A stretch of DNA of 64,000 nt from Hyaloperonospora brassicae. Its lineage: Eukaryota > Oomycota > Peronosporomycetes > Peronosporales > Peronosporaceae. Of the stretch, positions 1-6,981 are shown in pieces (the stretch's first letter is position 1; each line of letters opens with the position of its first letter). The position numbers and the translations under genes were made by a program. The stretch is from positions 19,784 to 83,783 of the forward strand of contig CANTFL010000323.1 of assembly GCA_947650285.1 (NCBI GenBank), read 5' to 3'. A model generated the notes under the pieces. It worked only from the letters and a program-made list of their open reading frames with translations. It did no database searches and was not told where the DNA came from.

Positions 1-3
1 AGC

Positions 4-1126
4 TTGTCTCACGAGACAAGCCAACACCATCGAATACCCGTATTCGATGCAACTGAGCTTCACGGCTTGCGTTCCAGCGCGAAGAACTTTCGCGGTGAAG
101 AAGATTTTTATCTCGATGTCTTTCTTAGACATCTATGGTACAACAGCAACCAAAAGCGTGACAAAGCATCGCTTTTGGCTGCGTGGAACGCGTTCGTCCA
201 AAACGTAAAGAATTTTGGACGAGAAGGGTGGCTCAAGAAACTTGAGGCGACACGCCTCAGGTTCGAAAGGCGAACGCCAACCGGTGCTAGGTACCGGTTG
301 CACTGTTTATCGAGTGAGGCAGGCATTCCTTGACTCACATGGGGAGACCCCTGTGCGAGTTGTGTTGACAACTCGCAGCGTGCACATAGGGATGTGTACT
401 CCCTAAATTCGCCCTGGGGAAGGGCACACATCTCGGCTGAGATGCGTGACGCGATTGCAAACTTGCAATCCGTCTACAAGCGCCTAGGGCGCGTGTTTAC
501 CGATGGGCCACAGGACTCATCGGATGGGTCTCGTCATACTGGCGGACGAGACCTTCAACATCCATCAACAGCTGAGAGCGGGGCTCCCAGCTGTTCCAAG
601 AGGGTGGATACCCCCGCCACTGGACGAGGTGGCTCGTCCTTGATCCTGAATCGTCACGGTGATTCAAGATACGCTCCACTAGAAAGCGTTGATCACCGTG
701 AGCATCCACCAAAGGATGTGGTGGAGGAGGAAAGACCTCCTCCAGATGATTCGGTTCACCATCTCGACCCTTACGAGATGGATCGCGCAATCGATGAATT
801 GCGCGATGACTTGAAGCACGAGAGCGACCGGCGCTACGCTTTGACTGATACCGTGCGGAAGAACCGCAAGGATCACGAGGCTGATCGGGCGAGGGATCGC
901 GCCGATTATGCCACAGCGTAGCTTCAGGTCGAGCGGGATGTCCGCTTCCTATTCGGCGAGCTGGCGACAGCTCGCGGGGAGATATCTCGGTTGAGCTCCG
1001 AGGTATCTTATCTGCGCGACCAGACGGATCGTCTGTAGCGCGAACGCAAGAACTTGATGGATGTTCTTGAACGTGGGGGCTATATTCATCGGAAGAAGAA
1101 GGCTCGTATCGACGGTACGGTCTGAG
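4..1126 (+). pseudogene. Antisense coiled-coil reading frame at the 3' end of the Ty3 element
   Basis: One plus-strand frame runs from the window edge to TGA at 1124, broken only by TGA at 331, TAG at 919 and TAG at 1036. It reads as an ordinary protein: an aromatic-rich N-terminal part (DFYLDVFLRHLWYNSNQ, KNFGREGWLKK), a Ser/Asp/Arg-rich middle and a charged coiled coil (DRAIDELRDDLKHESDRR, VSYLRDQTDRL) with a basic end. The true start may lie left of base 1. It overlaps the chromodomain frame on the other strand for 630 bp. No function is recognised. Caution: hairpin-rich DNA makes both strands alike, which can prolong an antisense frame. Confidence 0.55.
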
Positions 1127-1729
1127 TCGCCCCACGTAAAACGTAGGATGCGCGCGCATCCTACGTGGCAATTCGATCGTGTATGCATTGCCCTTGCGAT
1201 GCAACACTCGAAATGGCCCAATGTATTTCGGCAGTAGTAAACTACTGCCGACACTAGTGACTGCATGTCCAGGTAAGTTTACCGTAGACAGTAGTACTAG
1301 GTCATTAACTTTAAATGAAAGAACATTTGCTCTTCCATTCTTGTCTGCGTTCCGTTTCTGACGGTCCACCGCATTTGCGATGGAGTCCTGAACGAAAAGG
1401 ACTACCGCCTCTCGAGTCAGCAGGAAGTTCTCTGTTGACTCTTTGTTTTGCCTTTCAGTGCGCTTCGTGCGCACTGCTAAGAGATTGTTCTCTTCTTCAG
1501 CGAGGTTGTCTTCTTCCTCGCTGGAATAATCGTTGACGATGCTGAATATCCCAGCATCGTCATCATCATCCGAGTCAGTAATAGCGTCGTCGCTATTATT
1601 GAGATGATCTTCTTCATCGATGTCGACTTGATCGACATCGGCATCATACGTGACGACGTTAGCGTCGACACGTGATGAGCAAGAGCCAAAACGGTTTTTG
1701 CTCGAGCGAGTCCCTCCCCCCTTATCCAA
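497..1729 (-). CDS. Integrase C-terminus with chromodomain
   Basis: An open 410-residue frame. The first 90 residues are very acidic (Asp/Glu runs) and probably not original pol. From about residue 130 it reads as the integrase C-terminal region: LSFKVNDLVLLST, LLPKYIGPFRVL and RMRAHPTFYVGRLRPY. A low-complexity Ser/Arg/Pro linker follows, then a chromodomain (about residues 340-395) with RFLVERILNHRDD and LVQWRGYPPSWNSWEP, carrying the aromatic and acidic residues typical of methyl-lysine readers. Chromodomains can steer chromovirus integration to marked chromatin. This frame overlaps an antisense reading frame over 497-1126. Confidence 0.82.
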   Translation of the reverse strand: MDKGGGTRSSKNRFGSCSSRVDANVVTYDADVDQVDIDEEDHLNNSDDAITDSDDDDDAGIFSIVNDYSSEEEDNLAEEENNLLAVRTKRTERQNKESTENFLLTREAVVLFVQDSIANAVDRQKRNADKNGRANVLSFKVNDLVLLSTVNLPGHAVTSVGSSLLLPKYIGPFRVLHRKGNAYTIELPRRMRAHPTFYVGRLRPYRRYEPSSSDEYSPHVQEHPSSSCVRATDDPSGRADKIPRSSTEISPRELSPARRIGSGHPARPEATLWHNRRDPSPDQPRDPCGSSARYQSKRSAGRSRASSHRAIHRLRDPSRKGRDGEPNHLEEVFPPPPHPLVDAHGDQRFLVERILNHRDDSGSRTSHLVQWRGYPPSWNSWEPRSQLLMDVEGLVRQYDETHPMSPVAHR

Positions 1730-2343
1730 GAGTCACACTCTATAAGGGCGGGCACACGTGGATGGCGTAGGCCATTCACGTAAAACGGTGTGTGCTGTGT
1801 TGAGGCATGCACCGAATTATTGATGGCGAATTCCACCATGGGTAGGAATTCGCTCCAACTCGAAAACGAGTGGACATATCCTCGAAGGATCTATTCGAGG
1901 ACACGATTCGCACGTTCCGTCTGACCATCTGTTTCGGGATGGTCAGAAGTGGACATCGCCAACCGTGTTCCGAGAGAACGGAACACGGATTGCCAAAGTT
2001 CCACCGTGAATCGAGGGTCACGGTCGGATACGAGTTCACGGGGTAACCCGTGGAGTCTAAAGACAGTGTCGAGAAAGACACGAGCACAACCTTGAGCCTT
2101 GATCGACTCGGGTACAGCAGCAAGATGGACCATCTTGCTGAATCGGTCAACAAACACAAGAATACCATTATTCTTGTGAGCGTCTTCGGGAAAACCGAAG
2201 ACGAAGTCCATTGAAACGGACTACCAGCACTCTGCTGGAACAGGCAGAGGTTGCAATGGTGCACGGGATGAAGGACTAGGCTTCACCCGCTGACAAACCT
2301 CGCAATCACGTATGTACTTGCGGACAAACTGATACTGGCGTGG
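1730..2343 (-). pseudogene. Integrase catalytic core, frame-disrupted
   Basis: Three frames are needed to follow the integrase core. The CX2C half of the zinc finger lies just after 2340. The core at 2211-1891 shows the first catalytic Asp in MDFVFGFPED, the second in VSDRDPRFT and the Glu in DHPETDGQTERANRVLE, so all three DDE residues survive. The continuation MVEFAINNSVHAST (1839 onward) is in another frame. The core inserts element cDNA in the nucleus. The disruptions look like small indels in an old copy, or assembly errors; the two cannot be told apart here. Confidence 0.85.
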
Positions 2344-3240
2344 CTAGTAAAAGTCACGACTTACCGTGAGGTAAGTCTTTTCTCTCCCACGATGGCCGCT
2401 TGTTGGGGCATCGTGACAATCGTACATGATGCGTAAACGCATATCATCATGAGCGGGTACGACGACACGAGGCGTGTCGCCGGCAACAGCTGTATAATAC
2501 AGCAACCCGTTGCGTGTCGTATACCGATCCGATGAGGATCGGTACAAAGCCGGTAAATCTTTCAATGATTTACTGGATGGATTCAACAGATGATCCATCA
2601 ATCGCAGAAGATCTTTATCTTCTGCGTATGCCTTTCGTACGTCGTCAAGTAAGCTTGACGACGGAACACTGGCTGTCAGTGTCGCAACAGTGGGCTTATC
2701 CTCACTGTTGAATTGTGCGACCGGCTCGAAATCGGGCCGGCGCGAAAGCGCATCAGCGACGACGTTTAGTCGTCCTGGTTTATACTCCACGGAGGAGTTA
2801 TACTCCGCGAAGAAAGACAGCCACCTCGCCATCCTTTGCGAGAGGTGTGGGCTGTTTACGGCCGTGCGTAGTGACGCATGGTCCGTATAGACAACAAACG
2901 GTCTATCTCCCAAGAGATAGACGCGAAACTTAGCCAGTGCGTACTTCATGGCAAGGAGTTCCTTGTCATGCACTTGGTATTTGCGCTCAGCTGCCTGCAG
3001 CTGACGCGACTGATAACAGATGACGCGCTCTGCGCCATCTGCATCGAATTGCATTAAAGCACAGCCGATTGCAAAATCGCTGGCGTCACAGACCACATCA
3101 AATGGCCTGTCCTGATCTGCAATCGCCAAGGTCGGCGACTGCATCAAGCTCCGCTTGATACCTTCAAAGGAACGCTGGCACTCAGCGTTCCATGACCACT
3201 TGACATTTTTCTTGAGCAAGCAAGAAAGATGAACAGTCAT
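2344..3240 (-). CDS. Pol fragment: RT C-terminus, RNase H and integrase zinc finger
   Basis: The fragment starts in the RT connection (LLKKNVKWSWNAECQRSF). It contains the Ty3 RNase H with FDVVCDASDFAIGCALMQ, the DKELLAMKYAL helix and YTDHASLRT, ending in ADALSRRPDFE. After a linker it enters the integrase N-terminal HHCC finger (RLRIMYDCHDAPTSGHRGR, with H-x3-H-type spacing) and stops after VSRDFY. Catalytic D, E and D residues of RNase H are present. It is separated from the upstream RT by two frame changes in 3240-3530 and from the integrase core by a stop at about 2342. Confidence 0.88.
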   Translation of the reverse strand: MTVHLSCLLKKNVKWSWNAECQRSFEGIKRSLMQSPTLAIADQDRPFDVVCDASDFAIGCALMQFDADGAERVICYQSRQLQAAERKYQVHDKELLAMKYALAKFRVYLLGDRPFVVYTDHASLRTAVNSPHLSQRMARWLSFFAEYNSSVEYKPGRLNVVADALSRRPDFEPVAQFNSEDKPTVATLTASVPSSSLLDDVRKAYAEDKDLLRLMDHLLNPSSKSLKDLPALYRSSSDRYTTRNGLLYYTAVAGDTPRVVVPAHDDMRLRIMYDCHDAPTSGHRGREKTYLTVSRDFY

Positions 3241-6546: not shown

Positions 6547-6579
6547 GTTGGATGTTGTGGTCCTTGGAAGGACTACAAA

Positions 6580-6589
6580 GTGCTACCAG
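6580..6589 (-). promoter_or_regulatory. Putative tRNA primer-binding site
   Basis: Immediately inside the LTR, the minus strand reads CC then TGGTAGCAC. TGGTAGCA is complementary to a tRNA 3' end ...UGCUACCA, as in several initiator Met tRNAs. The position, two bases from the LTR end, is right, but the match is only about eight bases, so the primer identity is a suggestion. Confidence 0.45.
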
Positions 6590-6590
6590 G

Positions 6591-6981
6591 TGTAACGGGG
6601 CACACCCTTGCGTGAACTTAACGCAAGGGTTTCGGTGCCCCGACAGACGTACACGTGGCAAGCGAGGAAGCGTAGGCAAGGTAAAAGCAGAACTGTTATA
6701 TTAATATAATCAAGTCTTTAAACTACTGTCTCTCTGTTTGACTTCACTTAATTATCTTAATATAACTGAGTGTATGGTGACGTCTCGTCACCACTCATTG
6801 CGCGCGTCTTGCGGCGATTGGTGGGTTGATATCATCAAGATATCAACCAATGAACAGACTCTTTGGTCGACCCTTCAATATCACCACTTTGGTGATATTG
6901 TTCAAAGAATATTCAAATTCATATTCTTTATTGTCACTTTCCTTAAAGTGACAATTCCATGTAACGAGCTGCCCCGTTACA
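6591..6981 (-). repeat. LTR (5' LTR in element orientation), 391 bp
   Basis: The segment begins TGTAACGGGGCA and ends TGCCCCGTTACA, a perfect 12-bp terminal inverted repeat with the TG...CA ends of LTRs, and lies directly upstream of gag. It contains perfect hairpins at 6824-6833/6839-6848, 6876-6885/6891-6900 and 6930-6940/6945-6955. The terminal 50 bp fold as nested stems (GGGGCAC with GTGCCCC around an inner CCTTGCG stem). The partner LTR is outside the window, so LTR divergence and target-site duplication cannot be read. Confidence 0.85.

What the first reader, a model, noticed from the sequence alone, without database searches (positions are those of the whole stretch)
1..6981. A Ty3 retrotransposon saturated with perfect short hairpins, ending exactly at its LTR boundary
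Read by eye, the element carries a perfect inverted repeat of 6-11 bp with a 2-15 nt loop about every 25-35 bp, through LTR, gag, pol and the 3' region. Examples (arm/arm): 28-36/41-49; 3557-3563/3570-3576; 3581-3588/3598-3605; 3613-3619/3628-3634; 3684-3692/3697-3705; 3712-3720/3732-3740; 3751-3758/3769-3776; 3825-3833/3836-3844; in the LTR 6824-6833/6839-6848, 6876-6885/6891-6900, 6930-6940/6945-6955. In 3540-4220 I count roughly 20 with stems of 7 or more. Coding still reads as gag-pol. Sampled stretches of element B, the LINE and the spacer after 6981 do not show this. Two hypotheses: repeated template switching during reverse transcription turns quasi-palindromes into perfect ones (a mutational footprint), or selection for a hairpin-dense genomic RNA (packaging, stability, escape from silencing). 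I know of no described element with this property.
Basis: partly seen in the sequence, partly recalled or inferred. Interest (0 to 1): 0.92.

Follow-up and report, generated by a model that had tools for sequence, protein, structure and literature searches.

The report
Jumping gene saturated with tuned hairpins
A recently active retrotransposon, probably from an oomycete, carries a small perfect hairpin-forming sequence about every 60 bases along its length, kept in a way that treats both DNA strands alike and decaying in old copies, which points to an unrecognised kind of constraint on a mobile element.

Summary
Window 1-6981 holds 110 perfect hairpins (stem >=7, loop 2-15; 15.8/kb) against 0.72/kb elsewhere. 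It is most of a 7,991-bp chromodomain-bearing Ty3 element on the minus strand. All 19 full copies examined are saturated: about 18/kb in recent copies, about 14-15 in most old ones. Density is similar in LTR, gag and pol; synonymous shuffling abolishes it (69 stems >=8 in pol versus 1.6). Sister families show a gradient (9.2, about 4.5, about 2/kb), with hairpins at other positions. Variants shared between copies avoid stems (0.019 per site; loops 0.068), singletons barely (0.156; 0.199). Shared stem changes seldom compensate (3 of 50) and loops hardly invert (2 of 144), arguing against template switching. G.U and A.C mismatches are about equally common and both strands fold equally, disfavouring a sense-RNA-only role. 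Stem length trades off against GC. The clade also has a conserved antisense ORF. Best reading: selection for hairpins on both strands, perhaps to keep sense and antisense RNA from pairing. The role is inferred; mutational protection is not excluded.

The parts
1..6981 (-). Ty3-type LTR retrotransposon, 6,981 of 7,991 bp (rest lies left of the window; whole copy = locus L011:1275-9265, 5-bp target duplication CTGCT), with 110 perfect hairpins of stem >=7
   Evidence: LTR pair and target duplication; hairpins
6591..6981 (-). 5' LTR, 391 bp, ends TG...CA; 7 hairpins of stem >=7 per LTR in each of 4 young copies counted
5395..6546 (-). gag ORF (Retrotrans_gag PF03732, Ty3 capsid PF19259; zinc knuckle below its cut-off)
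3458..5341 (-). pol, first open stretch of this interrupted copy: protease (RVP_2) and start of reverse transcriptase (RVT_1)
2344..3240 (-). pol stretch: RNase H domains and start of integrase zinc-binding domain
1891..2211 (-). pol stretch: integrase core (rve)
497..1729 (-). pol 3' stretch: Tf2-1-like SH3 and chromodomain
394..921 (+). piece of the antisense ORF (opposite strand to the pol end), interrupted in this copy, open as 535 aa in copy L025
4..333 (+). second piece of the antisense ORF; similar proteins occur in Hyaloperonospora and Peronospora
3683..3706 (.). example hairpin, stem 11, loop 2
6930..6955 (.). example LTR hairpin, stem 11, loop 4; some other copies carry a compensated C-G/T-A variant
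6960..6981 (.). outermost hairpin, stem 7, loop 8, ending at the LTR boundary

Best explanation
A recently active, probably oomycete, Ty3 family is under selection to carry a high density of short Watson-Crick inverted repeats (stem about 7-11 bp, loop mostly 2-10 nt) along its whole length. Shown: the hairpins exist in every copy examined, depend on synonymous codon choice in the coding regions, are less variable than their surroundings in shared variants, are fewer in older copies, are strand-symmetric, and in the main family look tuned to folding energy. Inferred, first step: this constraint is selection for hairpin formation, acting on the DNA or on transcripts of both strands. Inferred, second step, my commitment on function: the element codes on both strands (gag-pol and an antisense ORF), and folding each strand's transcript into its own hairpins slows sense-antisense duplex formation and so dampens dsRNA-triggered silencing, while stems stay too short to serve as long duplexes. 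I give about 0.6 to selection on both-strand hairpins in general and about 0.3 to this particular function; the figure below is for the statement as a whole, weighted to its first step.
For: Stems defined in a third copy (L012): L013 versus L020 third-codon positions differ 0.006 in stems, 0.060 in loops, 0.039 elsewhere; non-coding 0.017, 0.103, 0.084. Shared variants (3 or more copies) per site 0.019 / 0.068 / 0.051, singletons 0.156 / 0.199 / 0.174 for stems / loops / other. Hairpin-losing alleles: 6 of 65 polarised shared variants versus 361 of 1,288 singletons of older copies; loss versus neutral odds ratio 0.26, P = 5e-4 (stem >=7; 0.33, P = 0.006 for >=8). Hairpin density follows LTR identity, rho 0.71, P = 6e-4 over 19 copies, 0.74, P = 4e-4 over 18 without L016. 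Main family and L051 family have the same mean hairpin energy, -12.07 +/- 0.26 (n 135) and -12.08 +/- 0.38 (n 68) kcal/mol (RNA parameters, loops 3-12), with different length (8.8 versus 8.1 bp) and GC (0.54 versus 0.66); in the 2.5-kb part compared, 0 of 17 stems >=7 lie on the same axis. In the main family longer stems are AT-richer (r = -0.37, 0 of 20,000 permutations; -0.32 in L020) and energies narrower than random stems (sd 3.0 versus 4.2). Sense and antisense fold equally: -47.98 and -47.94 per 120 nt, mean z -4.9 and -5.0, 62 of 66 sense windows z < -2. Antisense ORF. Small RNAs of both orientations cover Gypsy elements in Phytophthora infestans (PMC3522703, passages).
Against: Positive selection for hairpin gain is not shown: polarised shared variants give 2 gains where about 4 are expected by chance; the excess in the unpolarised set (27 gains, P = 0.0065) may be mis-polarised loss. 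In the youngest clade first and second codon positions show no contrast (stems 0.0036, loops 0.0023, other 0.0036), and with other defining copies the all-site contrast to surroundings shrinks to 1.3-1.5 fold. Spacing between hairpins is random (CV 1.07 versus 0.99), with gaps up to 191 nt, which pure accessibility-blocking does not predict. The hairpin-poor sister also has an antisense ORF (472 aa) in the same position, by position only, without detectable similarity. In L051 length and GC do not trade off (r = 0.07). The L051 family shows a 5'-arm base preference (G-Y-C-S-Y-S-R-G) that stacking energies do not explain. No expression or small-RNA data for this host are at hand.
Confidence: 0.5

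Rival explanations
1. Structural DNA marks: the inverted repeats act in the DNA (cruciform or single-stranded hairpin) and are read by a structure-preferring protein, possibly element-encoded, in the manner of anti-silencing systems that use many target motifs.
For: Strand symmetry and similar G.T and A.C mismatch numbers are natural for DNA. Positions turn over between families and spacing is random. The L051 family has a polar arm consensus. The L025 antisense protein has a basic C-terminal KKKAR stretch, and the model of its relative P0122 has a long C-terminal helix.
Against: No reader protein is known; the antisense protein has only sub-threshold Pfam matches and its model is poor (mean pLDDT 49.9). 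The main family shows no arm consensus.
Confidence: 0.25
2. Mutational protection: during the retrotransposition cycle paired bases mutate less than unpaired ones, so hairpins accumulate without being useful.
For: Accounts for slow stems, fast loops and decay in old copies. A simple simulation raises density to 5-15/kb. Gains are not enriched when polarised.
Against: With five-fold protection, near the ratio seen at third positions (0.014 versus 0.067), the simulation gives 5-9/kb with stem numbers falling from length 6-7 on, against about 16/kb on the same loop range (3-10) and a mode at 8-9. It gives no clear length-GC trade-off (-0.23 to 0.27; observed -0.37). The simulation is small (two runs of 1,500 letters per setting) and has no coding constraint.
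Confidence: 0.17
3. Template switching or fold-back copying homogenises quasi-palindromes into perfect ones.
For: Stems are perfect and locality is strong; such a process is proposed for nematomorph mitochondrial palindromes (PMC6649704, discussion). It may have contributed to births.
Against: 3 compensated versus 47 broken changes shared by 3 or more copies; no clear arm bias, 20 versus 27; lowered stem substitution; loop inversion in 2 of 144.
Confidence: 0.06
4. Selection for structure of the sense genomic RNA only (packaging, stability, ordered RNA genome).
For: Strong excess folding energy along the element.
Against: No tolerance of G.U over A.C: 83 versus 92 in singletons, 11 versus 17 in two copies, 17 versus 20 shared, and 59 versus 77 and 51 versus 73 in an earlier count over six young and six old copies; GNRA loops 2 of 23 sense and 2 of 23 antisense in L024; equal folding of the antisense strand.
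Confidence: 0.06
5. Chance, composition or assembly artefact.
For: None found.
Against: Shuffles, 41 matches over the whole 1,982-base query on many contigs, sister families.
Confidence: 0.01

Closest known systems
Ty3/gypsy chromodomain-bearing LTR retrotransposons
   Same: Gag, protease-RT-RNase H-integrase order, chromodomain, TG...CA LTRs, 5-bp target duplications
   Different: Hairpin saturation at 14-18 per kb with strand-symmetric constraint along the element
Coding palindromes of nematomorph mitochondrial genes (PMC6649704; abstract and discussion read)
   Same: Perfect inverted repeats inside conserved coding sequence, using code degeneracy, gained and lost between species
   Different: There up to 284 bp, mitochondrial and with repeat conversion proposed; here mostly 7-11 bp, spread over a mobile element, with arm conversion disfavoured
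Genome-scale ordered RNA structure of RNA viruses (recalled; search listing only)
   Same: Genome-wide excess of folding energy
   Different: Here perfect local Watson-Crick stems, no G.U tolerance, equal on both strands
VANC anti-silencing of VANDAL transposons (PMC10398659 abstract; PMC5735166 start of abstract)
   Same: An element whose protein acts on many target motifs of its own would resemble the DNA-mark rival
   Different: VANC targets are sequence-specific, in non-coding tandem repeats; here marks, if marks, are structural and cover coding DNA
Plant Retand elements with antisense ORFs (PMC11963269, start of abstract and passages)
   Same: Antisense ORFs between pol and 3' LTR
   Different: Retand is described there as non-chromovirus, most of its antisense ORFs carry a TRP28 domain, and the word hairpin is not found in that paper's main text

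Membership tests
Ty3/gypsy LTR retrotransposon, chromodomain-bearing | Paired LTRs with TG...CA ends and short target duplication | tested here: met
   19 of 20 fetched copies have an LTR pair (one runs off its contig); identical 5-bp flanks in 11 of 19; left LTR TGTA...TACA in 18 of 19
Ty3/gypsy LTR retrotransposon, chromodomain-bearing | gag, then PR-RT-RH-IN order, and C-terminal chromodomain | tested here: met
   Pfam domains in order on the minus strand
Ty3/gypsy LTR retrotransposon, chromodomain-bearing | Phylogenetic placement of RT | not tested
   No tree built; named RT relatives in the list are mostly oomycete proteins (best 120 of 350)
Genome-scale ordered RNA structure | Genome-wide folding energy below shuffled controls | tested here: met
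   62 of 66 windows z < -2
Genome-scale ordered RNA structure | Structure of the genomic RNA strand, with wobble pairs tolerated | tested here: not met
   G.U 111 versus A.C 129; sense equals antisense
Nematomorph-type coding palindromes | Arms kept identical, consistent with conversion | tested here: not met
   47 broken versus 3 compensated changes shared by 3 or more copies
VANC-like self-recognition | Element protein binds the target motif and lifts silencing | not testable with these tools
   Needs binding and chromatin assays

The most novel reading that the evidence does not exclude
A retroelement lineage has evolved a position-free, sequence-free structural code: hairpin-forming inverted repeats held at a characteristic density and folding energy on both strands of the whole element, used in the silencing contest with its host. 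This would be a form of selection on a mobile element that I know of in no other system.
Probability: 0.35. Interest if true: 0.93.

Novelty: new variant of a known kind. Interest (0 to 1): 0.86.

Why it matters
Selection on DNA or RNA shape across an entire protein-coding element, largely independent of position and sequence, would be a new axis of host-transposon conflict. The graded sister families, copies of different age and the built-in near-neutral control (singletons of old copies) make the cause directly testable by probing, small-RNA sequencing and comparison across downy mildews and Pythium-like oomycetes.

Tried and rejected
Template switching as upkeep, sense-RNA-only structure, artefact and chance were rejected or disfavoured for the reasons given. 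Even spacing was tested and rejected: spacing is random. Positive selection for hairpin gain looked present in the unpolarised set (P = 0.0065) but not after polarising (2 gains, a small set). Stable tetraloops: no clear excess in the main family; 5 of 20 sense and 3 of 20 antisense GNRA in L051, not pursued. The antisense ORF as the cause of hairpins: not supported, since the hairpin-poor sister has an ORF there too. Homology of the two antisense protein groups: hhalign found only 53 weak columns at 23% probability. DNA of relatives from other collections: none in viral contigs or genome contigs. LTR-LTR differences within copies as a clean post-insertion control: abandoned, because loops exceed other sites there as well (stems 0.024, loops 0.062, other 0.033). 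My script paired L016 with an outer tandem LTR (94.9%); its inner pair is 98.5% identical, and L016 entered the other copy comparisons with that extra LTR. One line (first, combined gag+pol) used a wrong frame start and was dropped. The structure model of the antisense protein relative P0122 was too poor (pLDDT 49.9) for a fold search, so none was run.
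Full report
What was checked. The 11 quoted arm pairs are all exact. Perfect hairpins (stem >=7, loop 2-15): 110 in window 1-6981 (15.8/kb) and 41 in the other 57,019 bases (0.72/kb). 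The flanks of 19 copies have 2.2/kb, or 1.6/kb without the three loci whose flanks I knew to hold further LTR sequence; single flanks such as L028's right one (8 hairpins in 500 bp) raise this and were not looked into.

Identity. The window is G000:C153:19784-83783 of a 100.6-Mb genome in 898 contigs. The element lies on the minus strand and is 7,991 bp long with 391-bp LTRs (99.2% identical) and a 5-bp target duplication. It encodes Gag, protease, RT, RNase H, integrase, an SH3-like domain and a chromodomain. Named RT relatives are mostly oomycete proteins: Peronospora matthiolae up to 78-85% over parts, Pythium oligandrum 78%, Globisporangium and Phytophthora lower; the closest (92-94%) are unnamed environmental records. 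The host species is not known to me; oomycete is inferred. The window copy is interrupted in pol; copy L024 has gag at sense 400-1587 and one long pol frame at 1485-6482.

Copies. One search lists 41 matches over the whole of a 1,982-base query (window 5000-6981), a lower bound. I fetched 20 of these 41 places; one ran off its contig, leaving 19 elements with LTR pairs. All 19 have 14.2-18.3 hairpins/kb. Density correlates with LTR identity, rho 0.71, P = 6e-4 (0.74 over 18 without L016). Ten 2.5-kb fragments of further family copies have 12.8-17.2/kb.

Shape of the feature. In L025, 31.8% of bases lie in perfect stems >=7; loops peak at 3-5 and the excess fades beyond 15-30 nt (both LTRs counted). 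For loops of 3-10, stems of exactly 8, 9 and 10 bp number 32, 33 and 27 against 0.8, 0.1 and 0.1 expected, stems of 5 83 against 38.5, while stems of 3-4 are near expectation. In 4 of 4 young copies counted (L013, L020, L024, L025) density is 17.9 in the LTR, 17.7 in gag, 17.1-18.0 in pol, 16.1-17.7 in the stretch open on both strands, 21-25 in the antisense-only stretch, and 8.6 in the 116-bp tail (one hairpin). Distances between hairpins are random. In L024 pol the phase that opposes third positions to each other is depleted for stems >=8, 12 versus 31 and 26, P = 0.015, as expected if synonymous sites supply the pairing; for stems >=7 it is not significant (P = 0.14), nor in L051 (P = 0.86, 0.91). 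Synonymous shuffling leaves 1.6 of 69 stems >=8 in pol.

Sister families. From 150 scored RT matches I fetched 20 fragments; ten belong to this family. The other ten: L033 8.0/kb (RT 70% identical), L031, L032 and L035 4.4-4.8 (72%), L037, L044 and L045 1.6-2.0 (64-65%), L046 and L047 (26-27%) 0.4-1.2, and L050, without a tblastn match, 0.7. Synonymous shuffles confirm an excess for L033 (20 versus 2.3), L031 (12 versus 2.2) and L032 (8 versus 1.9), and a slight one at best for L044 (4 versus 1.7). The full sister element at the L033 place, L051, has 71 hairpins (9.2/kb) with flanks of 1 and 0. Hairpins of the main family do not sit on the same axis as those of sisters at stem >=7 (0 of 17, 10, 7, 7, 3 and 4); at stem >=6 there are 2 of 31 with L033 (0.25 expected) and 1 each with L031 and L032. 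L033 and L031 share 5 of 12 (expected 0.04), one with a compensated pair. So density outlasts most individual hairpins.

Constraint. With stems defined in L012 or L017, L013 and L020 differ 5-6 times less in stems than in loops (0.008 versus 0.042-0.043) and 4-4.5 times less than elsewhere. With L020 or L013 as definer and L012 in the comparison the contrast shrinks (0.025 / 0.048 / 0.033 and 0.019 / 0.058 / 0.028 for stems / loops / other), perhaps because L012 is itself decayed. Shared variants show the contrast (0.019, 0.068, 0.051), singletons barely (0.156, 0.199, 0.174). Within the youngest clade it is strong at third positions (0.0016, 0.0149, 0.0120) but absent at first and second positions (0.0036, 0.0023, 0.0036). 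Hairpin-losing alleles are depleted among polarised shared variants (6 of 65 versus 361 of 1,288). Hairpin gains are not demonstrably favoured. Compensated changes are 3 of 50 among those in 3 or more copies and 2 of 47 among those in two; among singletons 14 are compensated, 11 doubly changed but unpaired and 330 single.

Which molecule. G.U and A.C mismatches in stems: 83 versus 92 in singletons, 11 versus 17 in two copies, 17 versus 20 shared. Generalised stems containing G.U or A.C are about equal in each of 6 copies (for example 46 versus 49 in L025), and in L051 (18 versus 24, near a shuffled 16 and 13). Sense and antisense folding energies are equal within error in L025, L020, L013 and L051. 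A sense-RNA-only function would favour G.U. What remains is DNA, or RNA of both strands, or a strand-blind mutational process.

Energy. Mean hairpin energy is -12.07 (se 0.26) in L024 and -12.08 (se 0.38) in L051 with RNA parameters, -8.07 and -8.08 with DNA parameters, despite different stem length and GC; L031 and L032 have weaker means (-10.9, -9.5) from 10 and 9 hairpins. Random stems with L051's lengths and the main family's GC would average -10.5. In the main family length and GC trade off and the spread is narrower than random; in L051 there is no such trade-off (r = 0.07) and the spread (3.1) is close to random (3.4). So tuning within a family is shown for the main family only, and the agreement of means rests on two families.

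Antisense ORF. On the opposite strand of the pol end and the pol-LTR stretch an ORF is open in 5 of the 6 examined copies with LTR identity above 99.4% (L013, L019, L020, L024, L025; not L021) and interrupted in the window copy (99.2%), L012, L014 and L023 (10 of 19 copies looked at, lengths there cut by the stretch examined). Full length was measured in L025 (535 aa from its first Met) and L013 (462 aa, stop to stop). Variation in the window 4-333 part concentrates in one codon position (11, 20, 6 shared; 22, 39, 22 singletons). Eight database proteins match: two over 95-96% of its length at 48%, one from Hyaloperonospora arabidopsidis (49% over 71%) and one from P. matthiolae (36% over 72%) among them. 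L051 and L053 have a related pair of antisense proteins (38% identical, arginine-serine rich, with a CxxC motif), and the hairpin-poor family has an ORF of 472 aa in the same position without detectable similarity. The ORF shows that both strands of this clade are probably coding, but it is not specific to hairpin-rich families.

Literature. Ten searches of the open-access library were run; six of them bear on hairpins in retroelements, and none of the titles and abstract starts listed reports a hairpin-saturated retrotransposon. The lists are capped. PMC6649704: outline, abstract and discussion. PMC11963269 and PMC3522703: passages. PMC10398659: outline and abstract. PMC5735166 and others: search listing. 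Statements on ordered RNA genomes and cruciform preferences are recalled.

Verdict. The phenomenon is real and strong, and I know of no described process that explains it. Selection on both-strand pairing is the best-supported cause; its purpose is inferred; mutational protection during the cycle is the main alternative that my data do not exclude.

Noticed in passing
window 4-333 and 394-921 (+); L025:1038-2642; L051:7250-8644; L053:1251-2765: Antisense ORFs of about 460-540 aa overlapping the end of pol in this Ty3 clade, in two protein groups without a Pfam family; a third ORF (L052:1845-3260) lies in the same position without detectable similarity.
   Followed up: partly
G000:C93:228688-230324 (next to L016): Tandem array of LTRs: four further LTR copies at about 415-bp steps beside a full element; the outermost fetched pair carries matching 5-bp flanks in my script's choice of ends.
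   Followed up: no
L051 hairpins: 5' arms show a polar consensus G-Y-C-S-Y-S-R-G and a sharp stem length of 8-9 bp, unlike the main family.
   Followed up: partly
L053:3282-4001: A stretch encoding a main-family antisense protein (85% identical) lies beside the C769 sister element in the opposite orientation, so two elements of the clade are neighbours.
   Followed up: no
window 23794-25970 (+): Another retroelement with RT, RNase H and integrase domains, in kilobases with 0-2 hairpins of stem >=7 each.
   Followed up: partly
window 29848-33557 (-): LINE-type region with RVT_1 and RNase H-like domains, no perfect hairpins of stem >=7 in its three tested ORFs.
   Followed up: partly
window 10810-13482 (+) and 52981-54558 (+): Host-type genes: hydroxyproline O-arabinosyltransferase-like and RNA pseudouridylate synthase.
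   Followed up: no
window 14349-14372 and 28090-28114: The only two perfect hairpins of stem >=9 (loop 2-15) in the window outside the element.
   Followed up: no
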